DNA of 21,417 nucleotides from a virus. The notes under the pieces were generated by a model. It was not told where the DNA came from. It made no database searches and saw nothing but the letters and a program-made list of their open reading frames with translations. The stretch spans positions 1-21,417 of IMG/VR virus record IMGVR_UViG_3300048833_000586; one strand, given 5' to 3'. Both the position numbers and the translations under genes were made by a program. This document shows positions 7,065 through 17,068 of this stretch, one piece after another (the first letter of the stretch is position 1; every line of letters starts with the position of its first letter).

Positions 7065-7385
7065 TCAGGTCGTCTCCCCCTCGCGGCGGGCAGCGGTGCC
7101 CTCGGCCATGCCGATGCGGATCGCGAGCAGCAGTTCGGCGGCGAGCCAGCCGGTGGCGCCGAGTTCGCGCGCCGCAGCCAGCGCGCCGGCGGTGTCGAGG
7201 GTCAGGCCGGCCATCGTGACCTCGGCGCAGGCCGTGCCGGCGGCCCAGCAGGCATGGCCTTCAAGGCTGGCAGGAGCGTGCGAGGCGTAGGGGCAGGCGT
7301 CGGCGCAGTCGCGGCCGAGGGCGGCGCAGCCGCGGCAGTACTCGGGCCCGCGGCCGAAGTGCCAGGCGGCGCGAGCCCTCAGCCG
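7065..7385 (-). CDS. Frameshift-expressed C-terminal extension of tail assembly chaperone (gpT-like part of a gpGT-type fusion)
   Basis: This reading frame lies -1 relative to the chaperone and continues past the chaperone stop for 106 residues. It begins RLRARAAWHFG directly after the slippery site at 7385-7391. Translation of the chaperone with a -1 slip would give a protein of about 230 residues. The extension is Cys-rich (EYCRGC, GRDCADAC, HACW, TAC) and then forms two helices ending just before the tape measure start. In lambda the T domain binds the tail tube subunit and G binds the tape measure. The Cys cluster could bind metal, which is inference. An internal ATG at 7212-7214 could also be read as a short separate gene. 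Position between chaperone and tape measure supports the gpGT model. Confidence 0.75.
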   Translation of the reverse strand, partial: RLRARAAWHFGRGPEYCRGCAALGRDCADACPYASHAPASLEGHACWAAGTACAEVTMAGLTLDTAGALAAARELGATGWLAAELLLAIRIGMAEGTAARREGETT

Positions 7386-7756
7386 TTTCCCTCGGCTGTC
7401 ACCGCGGCGACTGAGGCCGTGGCGCGGTCCCAGAAGGCGGCGGCGATGTCGTCGAGGTCCATCAGCCGCTCGACCGCCTCGGGCGACAGCGGCAGCTTCT
7501 GGCCGGCAGCGTCGCCGACGCCGTCCCAGGCGGTGACGGCGTGCCGGGCCAGCGCCTTGACCAGGAACGCGAAGGACAGGCCGCGCGACATGTCGGGGTC
7601 GAGGTCCGGATCGGCGATGCGGATCGCGGCCAACCGACGCGCGGCAGCGGCCTGGGCGGCGGCCATCACCGCGGTGGTCACAGGGCGGATCTCCACGCGG
7701 ACGCCGCGCGGCAGGTCGAGCCAGTACGGCTCGGCGAGGAGGTCGAGGGTGAGCAT
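7379..7756 (-). CDS. Tail assembly chaperone, lambda gpG position
   Basis: This 125-residue, mainly helical acidic protein starts at ATG 7754-7756, with GGAG about 7 bases upstream. It has no catalytic motif. Its recognisable features are an N-terminal LTLDLLAEPYWLDLP strand pair, an Ala-rich helix and PEAVERLMDLDDIAAAFW. It lies directly before the tape measure gene, and two codons before its stop is a canonical slippery heptamer. Short form plus frameshifted long form is the conserved arrangement of tail assembly chaperones in long-tailed phages. The proteins coat the tape measure during tail tube polymerisation and are absent from the finished virion. Unlike in lambda, the gene is separated from the tail tube gene by about 2.4 kb of cargo. 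Confidence 0.8.
   Translation of the reverse strand: MLTLDLLAEPYWLDLPRGVRVEIRPVTTAVMAAAQAAAARRLAAIRIADPDLDPDMSRGLSFAFLVKALARHAVTAWDGVGDAAGQKLPLSPEAVERLMDLDDIAAAFWDRATASVAAVTAEGNG
7385..7391 (-). promoter_or_regulatory. Programmed -1 ribosomal frameshift site (slippery heptamer GGGAAAC)
   Basis: On the minus strand the chaperone frame reads GAG GGA AAC GGC TGA. The heptamer G-GGA-AAC fits the X-XXY-YYZ rule in the correct phase. Slipping back one base continues into the open frame that ends at 7065. Lambda uses GGGAAAG at the same place, so the site is nearly identical to the best-known case. The stop codon two codons downstream is also typical. A stimulatory RNA structure was not resolved by eye. 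Confidence 0.85.
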
Positions 7757-7971
7757 GCGTCACTCCGAGATTGAAGCGTTATCGACAACCCACTCAGCGG
7801 TGGGACGAGCATTTCGGGGGGGTGCAGCAACCGGGTCCAACGACCGAATGCGGAGCTTTCCGGCCGTACCAGTGCCGGCTCCGAACTGGGAGCCCGTGAC
7901 GCTCAACGCGATCGTCGATGCCCGAAGCTGAGCCCTTCGACCGGAGACTTGCCTCATCTATAGGTAAAGGC
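7757..7971. other. Intergenic cargo boundary next to the tail chaperone
   Basis: These 215 bases separate the divergent chaperone and PIN-like genes. On the minus strand a small open frame (7760-7957, 65 codons) ends three bases before the chaperone ATG, which is operon-like spacing. Its protein (ending in EWVVDNASISE) is not recognised and could be the severed end of an older phage gene or chance. On the plus strand TATAGG at 7959-7964 resembles a -10 box for the PIN-like gene, but the candidate -35 (TTCGAC, 7936-7941) is poor. No repeat or attachment-site signature was found. Confidence 0.35.
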
Positions 7972-9096
7972 ATGGAAAAATCGCCTCCTCCCGAGCTCGA
8001 GCCGCCCCGCCCGGGGGGGAGCATCCTCAAAATCAAGGAGCTCGAGCATCCGGAGGGCGGTGCTCCCCGAACGATTGCCTTCACCGAGTTCGATATCAAG
8101 CCGCTCGGCTACGAGGAGCTTGCCTCGGCCAAGCTGCACCAAGCGATGACGATTCCGCTCGAGATCTACAATGGCCGCATCGTTGAGACCGACATCAAGG
8201 ATGTCGACGTCACGAAGTATGTGCGCATCAGCACCACTCTCGAGAGTCCGTTCACTGCGCGGGCAATAGGTCTCGTGCGTGGTGGTTGGCTGCCTTCGGC
8301 GCTCGCGGCGACGCGTGCCAATGCTGTTATCCTGCCCGATCGGAACATCATCTCAGACATCGTCGGTCGGTTCGAAGCCGGCAGACCAGTGAGGCGCGAG
8401 CCGGATTTCCTAGACCTATTCGAGAATCAAAATGTGCGCATCAGCCCGCTCGTCGCGGCGCTCGAAGGTAATAGGCGCGAAATCCCGACCGCAGAGGTAG
8501 CGCGGACCCAGCTCAATGAGGCGGTGACGAAGCTTGGCCGGGCGCTGCCTCAAGCCACGCTAATGGTCGGGCCGAGCACGAATAGGGGTCTCCTTGGTCT
8601 CATCGATGACATGCAGCCCGGATTCGTACGCAAGCAGGCTTTGCTGCGGCGATTAGCGCCACGACTATGCTCACCTGCGCCGCGACAAGAGATCGACGCC
8701 CGTTGGTGGACGGTCCTGAACGAGGCAGACACTCACCAGGTGCCGCGCACCTCACTGCTGGTGCTGGCGCTGCTCAGCGCCCTCGTTCACCCTGTCGGCG
8801 AGTGCGCAGCGAAGAAGCTGCTCAAATTGCACGCCAGGTACGACGACGGCGATGCCTACAATGCGCTGAGTGATCTGCAGGCACTCGAGTTGCTCCTCCA
8901 CTGCTTCGCCTTTCAGCCGGAGATCGAGCCGCAGCTCTGCACGGCGGACCGCAACCTCGCACTGTTTTGGGTTGGCATAGGTGCCAGCGCGATTGAGCGA
9001 GCGGGCAGCGGGGTTCGATGCTCGCTAGTACCACATCCGGCAATCCTCCCCGCTCCCTACGGAGAGCGATGGGCCAAGGATATCCGCTTGGCCTGA
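7972..9096 (+). CDS. Cargo protein with PIN-like nuclease features (function unproven)
   Basis: This 374-residue protein runs against the phage operon. The chosen ATG (7972) has AGG about 7 bases upstream; an in-frame ATG at 7918 would add 18 residues. Residues 1-110 form an unrecognised mixed domain (IKELEHPEGG to RAIGLVRGGW). At residues 118-130, NAVILPDRNIISD resembles the first strand and acidic residue of PIN domains. Near the C-terminus SDLQALELLLH (Asp301) and LCTADRNLALFW (Asp326) resemble the later acidic positions. Between them lies a long helical region. If correct, it is a metal-dependent RNase, as in many toxins and defence proteins. The similarity rests on a few motifs seen by eye, so the family is tentative. 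Codons and base composition are visibly less GC-rich than the phage genes on either side, indicating separate acquisition. Confidence 0.4.
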   Translation: MEKSPPPELEPPRPGGSILKIKELEHPEGGAPRTIAFTEFDIKPLGYEELASAKLHQAMTIPLEIYNGRIVETDIKDVDVTKYVRISTTLESPFTARAIGLVRGGWLPSALAATRANAVILPDRNIISDIVGRFEAGRPVRREPDFLDLFENQNVRISPLVAALEGNRREIPTAEVARTQLNEAVTKLGRALPQATLMVGPSTNRGLLGLIDDMQPGFVRKQALLRRLAPRLCSPAPRQEIDARWWTVLNEADTHQVPRTSLLVLALLSALVHPVGECAAKKLLKLHARYDDGDAYNALSDLQALELLLHCFAFQPEIEPQLCTADRNLALFWVGIGASAIERAGSGVRCSLVPHPAILPAPYGERWAKDIRLA

Positions 9097-9113
9097 CCAC
9101 CTCTCACAGACCT

Positions 9114-9140
9114 GCTGCCGACACAATCGGTGGCAGCTTT
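9114..9140 (+). terminator. Possible intrinsic terminator after the PIN-like gene
   Basis: Eighteen bases after the stop codon, GCTGCC (9114-9119) pairs with GGCAGC (9132-9137). An alternative inner stem pairs CCGA with TCGG. The stem is followed by only TTT and then GCATTG, so the T tract is weak. Placement just after the gene end supports a terminator; strength is uncertain. Confidence 0.45.
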
Positions 9141-9221
9141 GCATTGTAAGTCGGGTGCCCTCTCGCAGAGCCAGCTACCTCAGCTTCCTCACCAGAGCCG
9201 CCCTTGCGGCGCGGGTCGACG

Positions 9222-9446
9222 TCAGGCGTACTCCGTCCCCGCCTGCTGGTTTCTCAGCACCGCGGTGATCATTCACGTCGCCGTGGCGTTGTAGGCGGCG
9301 CGGCGCTTGAAGCTCGCCTCAACGCCATCGGGTCCTTCGACCGGCGTCTTGGCGATGCGTCAGGTAGACCTCGTACAGCGTGGAGGTGAGGCTGCGGTTC
9401 GCATTGATCGTGCAGCTGAAGGCGAACTCGGCGGGCGTTTTGTTCC
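9222..9446 (-). pseudogene. Decayed duplicate of the 3' end of the tail tube gene
   Basis: This segment aligns over about 225 bases with the 3' end of the intact tail tube gene (10171-10393), in the same orientation and at roughly three-quarters identity by eye. Long shared stretches include CTTCGACCGGCGTC and GGCTGCGGTTCGC (plus-strand text). Read on the minus strand it encodes a recognisable version of the last about 74 residues (AYETGAQQNRLVATIM against TYETGALQNKLVATMM). A TGA interrupts it at 9273-9275, and an extra base near 9353-9360 shifts the frame. It ends at a stop codon aligned with the real one. There is no start and no 5' part, so it is a dead fragment. With the intact copy it forms a direct repeat around the DarT-like gene. 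The bases between 9097 and 9221 hold only the possible terminator. Confidence 0.88.
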
Positions 9447-9480
9447 GGATGGCGTACGCATCCAGAGACAGCGGTTTGGG

Positions 9481-10017
9481 TTATTGGAAATCCAGGATGT
9501 AGGCTGCCGGTACCACGGTCGGAACCAGGACTTCATAGTTGGAGGCGCGATGTATCCGGTGCCGAACGAAGATGTCATCCCGGTCCAACTCTCCCAGGAA
9601 CGCCTCGTGATCCATGCGATCGACCGCTCGCGCGACAGAGTAGGTCTTGGTGCGATAGTGGTTCGCGCGACCGAGGGCGACCTTGGCGCCGCGAAGGTGC
9701 AGAACCTGCGGATCGACACTGAGCACGCGCGGTCGTCGCCAGCGCTCGTCCGGTTGCTTCGGCATCACCACGGACGTGTGGAAGGCAAGGAACACGTCGT
9801 TCCATAGCCCGTGCTGGCGATCGAGTGACCAGGTGAGCCCGTCGCCTCCGGGGTACACTGGCGTCACCCCTCTGGTCTCCGCCTCCTGTTTTGAGAGCAA
9901 GCCGTGCTTCGCAATTGATGCCAAGTTCCTCTCATCGGTCACGTGAAAAAGGGCCCCGTGCATCTTGCTGATAATGTGCTCGACAAGGAGCGACACGTTG
10001 TCGGGGCGAGAGGGCAT
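9481..10017 (-). CDS. Predicted ADP-ribosyltransferase toxin, DarT-like (DUF4433-like)
   Basis: This 178-residue protein, taken from ATG 10015-10017, begins its core with LFHVTDERNLASIAKHGLLS (residues 23-42). This matches the DarT-type pattern in which a His (25) and the Asn-Leu of an NLxSIxxxGL motif (Asn31) line the NAD pocket. The middle has WNDVFLAFHTSVVM and RVLSVDPQVL strands. The end has SNYEVLVPTVVPAAYI, where Glu162 sits as the expected catalytic Glu before a Leu-Val-Pro strand. DarT enzymes ADP-ribosylate thymidine in single-stranded DNA and act as toxins or anti-phage effectors, usually with a DarG macrodomain antitoxin. No macrodomain gene is visible here. The start is uncertain: the frame is open to 10143, and no good ribosome site precedes 10017. 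The gene lies just after the tail tube gene in the same direction, so late transcription could reach it. Composition is less GC-rich than its neighbours. The family call is by motif only. Confidence 0.5.
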   Translation of the reverse strand: MPSRPDNVSLLVEHIISKMHGALFHVTDERNLASIAKHGLLSKQEAETRGVTPVYPGGDGLTWSLDRQHGLWNDVFLAFHTSVVMPKQPDERWRRPRVLSVDPQVLHLRGAKVALGRANHYRTKTYSVARAVDRMDHEAFLGELDRDDIFVRHRIHRASNYEVLVPTVVPAAYILDFQ

Positions 10018-10170
10018 TGTCACACATACTGGAATGACCTCGACAGAATAGCCAGCGAGGTTCTGCACGGTGGCCCGGGCATCGACCGCGGCGTCCTCGG
10101 GAGCGCAAGTCCATCTCCGGCGTGAGCTCGGGAACCGACGCAATCCAGCCTTCGCAGACGGGACCGCGGC
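10018..10170 (-). pseudogene. Possible HicB-like antitoxin fragment, frameshifted and lacking its start
   Basis: Between the tail tube stop and the DarT-like gene, one minus-strand frame reads CEGWIASVPELTPEMDL. After a one-base shift the DarT-like frame continues PEDAAVDARATVQNLAGY. Joined, the two resemble the strand-then-helix layout of HicB-type antitoxins (W/Y-x-A-x-V-P-E-L followed by an Ala-rich helix). There is no start codon, because the tail tube gene ends directly before it. It may be the remains of an antitoxin cut at the recombination junction, or an unrelated N-terminal part of the DarT-like gene. This reading is weak and depends on a few residues. Confidence 0.25.
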
Positions 10171-11127
10171 TTACGTATATTCCGTCCCCGCCAGCTGGTT
10201 CTTCAGCACCGCGGTCATCATGCGGGTGGCGGTGGCGTTGAAGGCCGCGCGGAACTCGAAGCTCGCCTCGACGCCACCCGGGCCTTCGACCGGCGTCTTG
10301 GCCAGCGCCAGGTAGACCTCGTGCAGCGTGAAGGTCAGGCTGCGGTTCGCGTCGATCGTGTAGCTGAAGGCGAACTCCGCGGCGGCGTTGTTCTGCGCCT
10401 GCGTCAGCAGCGTGGTGTCCGCGAAGCGCGCGGTAATCTGGCCGGTGGCGCGGGCGACGCCGGGATCCACGCCCTCCACCTTCCGGTCGGCGCGGATGGT
10501 GCGGACCATCTCCATGCCGTTGGCGTAGGTGAGTCGCGCCCCCGTCACCTGCGCGAGCGCGGCACCGTTGCGGCTGATCGCGCCCTGCGCCTTGTTGAAG
10601 GCGGTGTAGGTGGCGCTGGTCGGCGTGCCACCACTGCTGCTCGCGCCACGTGTGGAACCCTGCCCCATCAGCCCGAAGGTCGCGGTGGCGGGACCGGTCG
10701 GCGAGAAGTCGATCTCCAACGTATCGGCGCGCACGCCGGTGCAAAGATCGTAGCTCGGCACGTCCGGGTAGCCGATCTCGATGCTGTTCGATGGCAGCGC
10801 GGCGGCGCCCGAGGCGAAGCTGTGGATGAAGTTGGGGCTGGTGCCGGTGGTGCTCGGCGCGCCGAGCAGCAGGCGCAGCCAGAGGCGGATGTTGACCAGG
10901 TCCACCGGCCCCACCGCCAGGCCCTGCACGGTGACGGTGTCGAGGAAGGGTGCCGCCGGATCGCGGCTGCTGCCGACGCCAATGACGTCGGCATCGAGCA
11001 GCGGCTGCTCGGCGCCGAGGTCGCAGGAGAGGAACGGCATGCGCAGCCAGTCGCCCGCGGGCGCGGTGCCGTAGGTGGCCTCCGGGATCATGAGCAGACG
11101 GCAATTGGCGCCGATGGCACGGGGCAT
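10171..11127 (-). CDS. Major tail tube protein, lambda gpV position
   Basis: This 318-residue protein shows the features of siphophage tail tube subunits: a beta-rich, Gly/Ala/Thr-rich sequence beginning MPRAIGANCRLLMIPEATYG, with an ATYGTAP segment common to this family. Strands such as DTLEIDFSPTGPATATFGLMG and SLTFTLHEVYLALAKTPVEG follow, and a C-terminal FEFRAAFNATATRMMTAVLKN. It polymerises as hexameric rings around the tape measure. The ATG at 11125-11127 has GGAG about 7 bases upstream, and the gene follows the gpU-position gene with a gap of 34 bases. It ends in TAA at 10171-10173. Its last about 74 codons are duplicated as a decayed fragment at 9222-9446. That raises the possibility that the present 3' end came from a related phage, although no frame damage is visible. 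Confidence 0.85.
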   Translation of the reverse strand: MPRAIGANCRLLMIPEATYGTAPAGDWLRMPFLSCDLGAEQPLLDADVIGVGSSRDPAAPFLDTVTVQGLAVGPVDLVNIRLWLRLLLGAPSTTGTSPNFIHSFASGAAALPSNSIEIGYPDVPSYDLCTGVRADTLEIDFSPTGPATATFGLMGQGSTRGASSSGGTPTSATYTAFNKAQGAISRNGAALAQVTGARLTYANGMEMVRTIRADRKVEGVDPGVARATGQITARFADTTLLTQAQNNAAAEFAFSYTIDANRSLTFTLHEVYLALAKTPVEGPGGVEASFEFRAAFNATATRMMTAVLKNQLAGTEYT

Positions 11128-16516: not shown

Positions 16517-16660
16517 GCTGTAATCCTCGTCTGAGCGGCCCTGTGACCCCGACCCACCGAATTGCCGGGGGATGTCAGCGTTCGCTGGTGCGCACCGATT
16601 CCGATGCAGACGGTTGGACGCGCGTGCTAGCGTTCTGGCCTTCGGCTAGGAGTGAGCAAG

Positions 16661-17068
16661 ATGCAGCACCGAACCGGCCTGACCTGCACCGTCGCAACCC
16701 TGATCGCCTGTTATCCGGCGCTGGCGCAGCAGCCGCCTGCGCGGCCCAATCTTCTGCTGCAGGAGACAGTCCAGGGAATGCCGCGCGGCGAGCGCCAGCA
16801 GGTCAGCGTGATGACGGCGACCATCAACCCCGGCCAGAGCACGGTCTTCCATACGCACCGCTTTCCAGTGACGGTCTACATCCTGGAGGGGGTCTTCACT
16901 CTCGAGATGGAGGGGCGCGAGGCGATTACGGTTCGGGCCGGCCAATCCATGGTGGAACCGCCGAATGTCCGCATGACTGGCTACAACCGAAGCGCCACCG
17001 AGCCGACGAAGGTTGTAATCTTCTATGTGGCGGAACCAGACACGCCATTCCTGGATCCGATCCGGTAG
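16661..17068 (+). CDS. Secreted cupin-domain protein (cargo gene)
   Basis: This 135-residue protein has an N-terminal signal peptide: an uncharged core TCTVATLIACYPALA with likely cleavage after Ala-Leu-Ala at residue 22. The mature part is a single small cupin: GQSTVFHTH (His64, His66), VYILEG, and motif two at GQSMVEPPNVRMTGYN. The Glu of motif one is absent (Pro69/Val70), and the His of motif two is replaced by Met105, so the standard four-ligand metal site is incomplete. The ATG has AGGAG eight bases upstream; an upstream GTG at 16652 is less likely. It lies between portal and capsid genes but on the opposite strand. No strong promoter or terminator was found within 16517-16660 or 17069-17110. 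The role is unknown; periplasmic small-molecule binding or host modification is possible. Confidence 0.8.
   Translation: MQHRTGLTCTVATLIACYPALAQQPPARPNLLLQETVQGMPRGERQQVSVMTATINPGQSTVFHTHRFPVTVYILEGVFTLEMEGREAITVRAGQSMVEPPNVRMTGYNRSATEPTKVVIFYVAEPDTPFLDPIR

What the first reader, a model, noticed from the sequence alone, without database searches (positions are those of the whole stretch)
9222..10393. DarT-like gene flanked by an intact and a decayed copy of the tail tube gene's 3' end
The last about 74 codons of the tail tube gene occur twice in the same orientation: intact at 10171-10393 and decayed at 9222-9446, with an in-frame TGA (9273-9275) and one extra base near 9353-9360. The toxin-like gene lies exactly between them. 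This is the pattern left when incoming DNA carries a replacement 3' end for its target gene and pushes the old end downstream, where it decays. Some integrative elements and recombining phages leave such a footprint. It implies that a structural phage gene serves as a docking site for cargo, keeping the tail functional while adding a gene. The mechanism is inference; the duplication is read directly from the sequence.
Basis: partly seen in the sequence, partly recalled or inferred. Interest (0 to 1): 0.78.

Follow-up and report, generated by a model that had tools for sequence, protein, structure and literature searches.

The report
Stacked phage cargo displaces tail-gene end
In a family of viruses living mostly in Acetobacteraceae bacteria, one spot between two tail genes collects toxin and defence genes, and adding a new gene there can leave a copy of the old end of the neighbouring tail gene behind as a scar, as happened here.

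Summary
The duplication is real. Window 9222-9446 is a decayed second copy of the tail tube gene's last ~74 codons (187/223 identical, in-frame TGA, extra base), with a DarT-like ORF between it and the intact end. A second metagenome contig carries the same junction.

The tube-to-chaperone interval is a cargo hotspot: of 149 distinct complete intervals, 5 are empty (0-13 bp) and 144 hold 0.6-7.1 kb, including toxin-antitoxin and defence genes.

Tube 3'-end scars recur (E<=1e-5) in 4 of 154 searched intervals, two of them homologous; all are in sense, reach the stop codon and lie between cargo ORFs. In three of the four, the sequence after the scar matches another phage's interval from base 1 after its tube stop.

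Best reading: additive, non-allelic recombination between related prophages; incoming cargo brought a tube 3' end and displaced the old one. No integrase or resolvase match fell in the interval in 40 viral records. Systematic travel of cargo with tube ends is not supported.

The parts
10171..11127 (-). intact tail tube gene (318 aa); its 3' end is 10171-10393
   Evidence: PF18906 E 3.3e-51; phrog_290 tail protein
9222..9446 (-). decayed copy of the tail tube gene's last ~74 codons: displaced-end scar
   Evidence: 187/223 identical to 10171-10393, TGA at 9273-9275, extra base near 9355; nhmmer E 1e-54 (in the identical contig L164)
9481..10143 (-). newer cargo: DarT-like ORF (220 aa; likely start 10017, 178 aa)
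   Evidence: PF14487 DarT 23.7 bits over a cut-off of 22.5, E 4.5e-5; 47.6% to a plasmid protein annotated DarT family; conserved H, T, N and E in a 4-sequence alignment
7918..9096 (+). older cargo: 392-aa ORF of unknown function, opposite strand
   Evidence: no Pfam, PHROG, PADLOC or NCBIfam match; 10 plasmid records with relatives, best 62.5%
7379..7756 (-). tail assembly chaperone gene: the other border of the cargo interval
   Evidence: phrog_313 E 2e-14
7757..10170 (.). whole cargo interval between tube stop and chaperone start (2,414 bp)
   Evidence: homologous interval in relatives is 0 to 7,142 bp

Best explanation
The stretch between the tail tube gene and the tail assembly chaperone gene is a cargo site in a family of temperate phages. 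Cargo is added by non-allelic recombination between related phages or prophages: on one side the incoming DNA is joined through the tube gene (or further upstream), on the other side its end is joined at or just inside the old tube gene's 3' end. The product keeps a complete tube gene whose 3' end came with the new cargo (here the DarT-like gene), followed by the displaced old 3' end, which is free to decay, and then the old cargo (here the 392-aa ORF) and the chaperone. Shown: the scar, its recurrence, its position between cargo ORFs, its collinearity with single-cargo intervals of other phages, and the origin of the two window copies from different members of one clade. Inferred: the order of events in the window, the homologous nature of the left crossover, the illegitimate nature of the right join, and that donor and recipient met as prophages or during coinfection.
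For: (1) 149 distinct complete tube-chaperone intervals: 5 empty, 144 of 595-7,142 bp, so cargo is gained and lost there. (2) Tube 3'-end scars at E<=1e-5 in 4 of 154 searched intervals (L164=window, L150, L261, L155; the last two homologous), all sense and all reaching the stop codon; reversed-sequence decoys gave no hit at E<1. (3) Each of the four lies between cargo ORFs. (4) After the scar, L150 matches the whole 807-bp interval of L168 at 93.3%, from base 1 after the tube stop; L261 and L155 match the whole 645-bp interval of L291 at 92% and 89% from base 1. (5) Ladder: the L018 interval (705 bp) forms the left part of L139 (93%), and the L139 interval (1,220 bp) the left part of L150 (96%). 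(6) 20 of 144 intervals of at least 500 bp contain at least 75% of another phage's complete interval: 14 on the chaperone side, 7 on the tube side, 2 internal, some counted twice; in 13 of the 14 the old interval's match begins within 29 bp after its tube stop. (7) Window copies differ at 37 sites, 19 of them third positions, as usual between clade members (mean 18.1); 9 + 9 at second and first positions exceed the mean (5.6 + 5.0); 12 scar alleles are absent from 32 relatives (decay); at 11 sites the scar has the clade's majority base and the intact gene a minority base, so the scar is not a copy of this phage's own gene end. (8) 17 of 37 genomes with a match carry two or more near-full-length tube genes, so related prophages share cells.
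Against: For the window no phage was found with either cargo alone, so its order of events is inferred. The lineage test is inconclusive. Cargo-sharing pairs do not on average share tube 3' ends more than non-sharing pairs (last-bin means 80 vs 79, 79 vs 83, 93 vs 87, 81 vs 86). Only 3 of 14 chaperone-side composites show a tube scar; in the fresh case L053/L241 (99.2%) the join is about 27 bp after the stop and leaves none. RecT, ERF and Rad52 recombinase families were not found in 23 phage records. L150's own tube gene is seen only as its last 59 codons because the contig ends there.
Confidence: 0.8

Rival explanations
1. Tandem duplication of tube-cargo-chaperone units by unequal crossing-over, followed by deletion of the inner chaperone and tube parts, leaving a chaperone 5' scar and/or a tube 3' scar. 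This is a variant of the best explanation with a different right-hand join.
For: L078 has a weak chaperone 5' match (hmm 1-86, E 0.068) directly abutting a weak tube 3' match (E 0.038) between two cargo ORFs; L150 has a weak chaperone 5' match (E 0.29) and a strong tube 3' scar; L046 has a clear chaperone fragment (E 2e-9) inside its interval.
Against: No chaperone fragment in the window interval; most composites have neither scar; the L078 and L150 chaperone matches are weak on their own.
Confidence: 0.35
2. Site-specific integrative element that uses the tube 3' end as attachment site and carries a replacement end.
For: Same topology as elements inserted in gene 3' ends; three scars start at nearly the same place (last 68-71 bp).
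Against: No PF00589 or PF00239 match inside the interval in 40 viral records (1 and 12 matches, at least 7.2 kb away); scar lengths of 68 to 224 bp; many additions have no scar. A serine-recombinase-like ORF was seen by eye 3 kb from the tube fragment of L145/L305, in a rearranged contig.
Confidence: 0.06
3. Plain local duplication of the phage's own tube 3' end with later insertion of the DarT-like gene between the copies.
For: Both copies belong to the same tube clade.
Against: At 11 sites the scar has the clade majority base where the intact gene has a minority base, and third-position divergence equals that between different phages; the scar is as close to other phages' tubes as to its own (own rank 6 of 162).
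Confidence: 0.08
4. Assembly or binning artefact joining two phages.
For: Metagenome-derived record.
Against: The junction is present in a contig of another sample at 99.97%; the same architecture occurs in contigs of cultured genomes (L150, L155 in G002).
Confidence: 0.03

Closest known systems
[quoted passage not shown] 2022, PMC9122126; passages read)
   Same: One phage position with highly variable antiviral cargo between conserved genes; the authors suggest that a homologous second crossover exchanges cargo
   Different: Those hotspots lie beside cos; here the site lies between tail tube and chaperone, modules add up, and displaced gene ends mark the additions. The passages read left the exchange mechanism open
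Phage morons (for example Tab in phage JBD26, PMC10884400; passages read)
   Same: Single accessory genes inserted between late structural genes, protecting the lysogen
   Different: Here serial stacking with gene-end scars can be read
Orphan cdiA-CT/cdiI modules of CDI and Rhs loci (PMC3150448; abstract and passages read)
   Same: Displaced fragments of the upstream gene's 3' part, in varying lengths, lie in front of older toxin modules
   Different: There the displaced part is the toxin domain; here the displaced end is a structural gene end without known function and the cargo is independent
Relaxed homologous recombination of temperate phages with prophages (PMC3945230, PMC2327257; abstracts read)
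   Same: Homology-driven exchange between diverged phages as source of mosaics
   Different: Those systems use Rad52-like recombinases; RecT, ERF and Rad52 families were not found in 23 records here

Membership tests
Prophage cargo (moron/defence) hotspot | Variable accessory genes between two conserved phage genes, with empty sites | tested here: met
   149 complete intervals, 5 empty, 144 of 595-7,142 bp; 320 ORFs fall in 222 sequence clusters
Prophage cargo (moron/defence) hotspot | Cargo includes toxin-antitoxin or antiphage genes | tested here: met
   ParD, ParE, Phd/YefM, caspase, macro domain, GmrSD, SIR2, ABC-3C; LmuA/LmuB, BilD, IetA, DarG matches in PADLOC. 106 of 320 ORFs were given, and only the top 25 families of each were visible
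Prophage cargo (moron/defence) hotspot | Cargo protects the lysogen | not testable with these tools
   needs an experiment
Integrative element in a gene 3' end | Element-borne site-specific recombinase | tested here: not met
   no PF00589 or PF00239 match in the interval in 40 viral records
Integrative element in a gene 3' end | Constant direct repeat (core) at both ends | tested here: not met
   scars of 224, 71, 71, 68 bp; most composites lack any
Integrative element in a gene 3' end | Replacement 3' end restores the target gene, old end displaced | tested here: met
   window and L150, L155, L261
DarT (ssDNA thymidine ADP-ribosyltransferase) | Sequence match over the curated cut-off | tested here: met
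   PF14487 23.7 vs 22.5 bits; no NCBIfam model and no PHROG matched; PADLOC DarT only E 0.002; no solved structure matched
DarT (ssDNA thymidine ADP-ribosyltransferase) | Conserved NAD-site and catalytic residues | tested here: inconclusive
   H25, T27, N31 and E162 invariant in a 4-sequence alignment; their roles are recalled, not from a call
DarT (ssDNA thymidine ADP-ribosyltransferase) | Neighbouring DarG macro-domain antitoxin | tested here: not met
   the only other cargo ORF has no Pfam or PADLOC match
DarT (ssDNA thymidine ADP-ribosyltransferase) | Modifies thymidine in ssDNA | not testable with these tools
   needs an assay

The most novel reading that the evidence does not exclude
The tube/chaperone junction is a stepwise accretion site: displaced tube 3' ends and chaperone 5' ends are a readable record of the order in which prophages acquired defence and toxin modules, and the conserved last ~70 bp of the tube gene acts as a recurrent homology arm for adding cargo without breaking the tail.
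Probability: 0.45. Interest if true: 0.65.

Novelty: new variant of a known kind. Interest (0 to 1): 0.52.

Why it matters
How prophage defence hotspots gain and exchange modules was left open in the passages read of PMC9122126. Here extant phages give ancestor, intermediate and composite intervals (L018, L139, L150, L168), so the order and borders of additions can be read and tested in the laboratory. It also shows that a structural gene's end can be replaced during cargo gain while the gene stays complete.

Tried and rejected
Lineage test on the window: nearest neighbours of 5' part, intact 3' part and scar all come from the same clade (L087 first for both 3' copies), and each structural gene has a different nearest relative, so mosaicism hides any switch. 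A test whether cargo travels with tube 3' ends gave no consistent rise; single pairs such as L012/L071 do show identity through the last ~70 bp and the cargo.

The tube fragments of L144, L148/L194, L193, L195, L196 and L197, all from the 3' part of the gene, have no intact tube in front in the stretch held and look like degraded or deleted prophages; they were not counted. L145 and L151 were added by hand to (E 3e-34 and 1e-13) and not counted, because no intact tube lies in front; L305 shows a rearranged contig for L145. L198 and L199 hold internal tube fragments not reaching the 3' end. L078 was kept as weak (E 0.038). Nine of 163 distinct intervals were too short (<40 bp) to search. In one search two further hits had E<1: L229 antisense (0.12) and L285 sense (0.74). 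The full-gene profile gave two further antisense hits at E 0.03-0.06 (L067, L101).

Paper searches: two returned nothing; in the listings shown by the others I saw no title or abstract start describing this site in Acetobacteraceae prophages; this says only what those ten searches list. De Paepe (PMC3945230) and Martinsohn (PMC2327257) seen as abstract and outline; PMC9122126, PMC3150448, PMC10884400 and PMC11364771 as passages.

Full report
What is there. The window is a 21.4-kb IMG/VR virus record with head and tail genes on the minus strand. The tail tube gene is 10171-11127 and the tail assembly chaperone 7379-7756. Between them lie a DarT-like ORF (9481-10143, minus strand), a decayed copy of the tube gene's 3' end (9222-9446) and a 392-aa ORF on the plus strand (7918-9096). 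It is also present in L164 from another sample.

The site in relatives. 80 viral loci and 71 genome loci, then further loci, gave 269 tube genes with a downstream stretch, 163 distinct after removing near-copies, 149 of them complete to the chaperone. The titled records are mostly Acetobacteraceae (Neoroseomonas, Roseomonas, Siccirubricoccus and others). Five intervals are empty (0-13 bp) and 144 span 595 to 7,142 bp. Cargo is diverse: 320 ORFs in 222 clusters. Named families among those examined include ParD, ParE, Phd/YefM, caspase, macro domain, GmrSD, SIR2 and ABC-3C and PADLOC matches to Lamassu LmuA/LmuB, BilD, IetA and DarG. 206 cargo ORFs point against and 88 with the tail genes by my GC-frame ORF choice. 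Mean G+C is 62.4% in intervals against 68.6% in tube genes.

Scars. A profile of the tube gene's last 240 bp found, at E<=1e-5, four scars in 154 searched intervals: L164 (the window's twin), L150, L261 and L155. L261 and L155 are homologous, so this is three independent cases. All are in sense and reach the stop codon; reversed decoys gave nothing at E<1. Each sits between cargo ORFs. A fifth, L078, is weak (E 0.038). Chaperone fragments also occur inside intervals: clear in L046 (E 2e-9), weak in L139, L078 and L150.

Composites. The decisive evidence is collinearity. In L150 the 807 bp after the scar match the complete 807-bp interval of L168 (93.3%), beginning at the first base after L168's tube stop; in L261 and L155 the sequence after the scar matches the complete 645-bp interval of L291 in the same way. 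The front part of L150 is the L139 interval (96%), whose front part is the L018 interval (93%). Across 144 intervals, 20 contain most of another complete interval, 14 of them on the chaperone side, i.e. with new cargo added on the tube side. In 13 of these 14 the old interval begins within 29 bp after its own tube stop. Three of the 14 retain a detectable tube scar. In the freshest case (L053 against L241, 99.2%) the join is about 27 bp behind the stop and no scar is left. So scars mark those additions where the join fell inside the old tube gene. There the intact tube end must have arrived with the new cargo or been supplied by it.

Source of the two window copies. They differ at 37 sites. 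Third-position differences (19) equal the mean between clade members (18.1), and the excess at first and second positions (9 + 9 against 5.0 + 5.6) and 12 scar-only bases fit decay. At 11 sites the scar has the clade majority base where the intact gene has a minority base. The copies therefore derive from two phages of one clade. Which one matches the 5' part cannot be told.

Mechanism. I favour additive, non-allelic recombination between related phages or prophages. 17 of 37 genomes with matches hold at least two near-full-length tube genes, and L139, L150 and L155 lie in one genome (L150 and L110, the twin of L155, are in G002; L139 carries the same AUDH01 record series as L150). No tyrosine or serine recombinase match lay in the interval in 40 viral records; the nearest was 7.2 kb away and 10 of the 13 matches were 28-33 kb away. 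RecT, ERF and Rad52 families were not found in 23 records, so a phage recombinase for relaxed homology is not shown and host recombination or an unrecognised enzyme is assumed. An average over cargo-sharing pairs gave no sign that cargo generally brings a tube end.

DarT-like gene. It passes Pfam's DarT cut-off narrowly, is 47.6% identical to an annotated DarT-family plasmid protein and keeps H25, T27, N31 and E162, but has no DarG neighbour. The older ORF has relatives on 10 plasmid records and no named family.

Verdict. It is a new variant of a known kind: a prophage cargo hotspot with readable stacking scars.

Noticed in passing
window 16652-17068 (+): A plus-strand ORF of 138 aa lies between the portal and capsid/protease genes; by eye it resembles a secreted cupin-like protein, so a second cargo site is possible.
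   Followed up: no
L148:5592-7568 (L194): A 658-aa open frame joins an unrelated upstream protein in frame to tube residues 200-318, apparently by deletion.
   Followed up: partly
L193:8567-8839, L196:212-394, L197:10307-10447: Degraded prophages in which head genes are joined to the tube 3' end by deletion, with cargo-like ORFs or the chaperone beside some of them.
   Followed up: partly
L208:6340-7851: A macro-domain protein with a PADLOC DarG match lies in the homologous interval of another prophage; no DarT partner was looked for by search.
   Followed up: partly
L226:5875-9033: Cargo that by eye looks like a mercury-resistance operon (reductase-like and MerR-like ORFs) in a tube/chaperone interval.
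   Followed up: no
L145/L305 (contig C76 of G004): A tube 3' fragment with HipAB-like and VapBC-like ORFs and a serine-recombinase-like ORF upstream (by eye), in a contig holding two tail-gene regions.
   Followed up: partly
H12, OP858991.1:8326-9255: A Synechococcus phage record annotates the tail-tube relative as 'site-specific tyrosine recombinase', probably a wrong label.
   Followed up: no
L206 interval: A stretch 53% identical to tape measure residues 293-578 lies inside the tube/chaperone interval.
   Followed up: no
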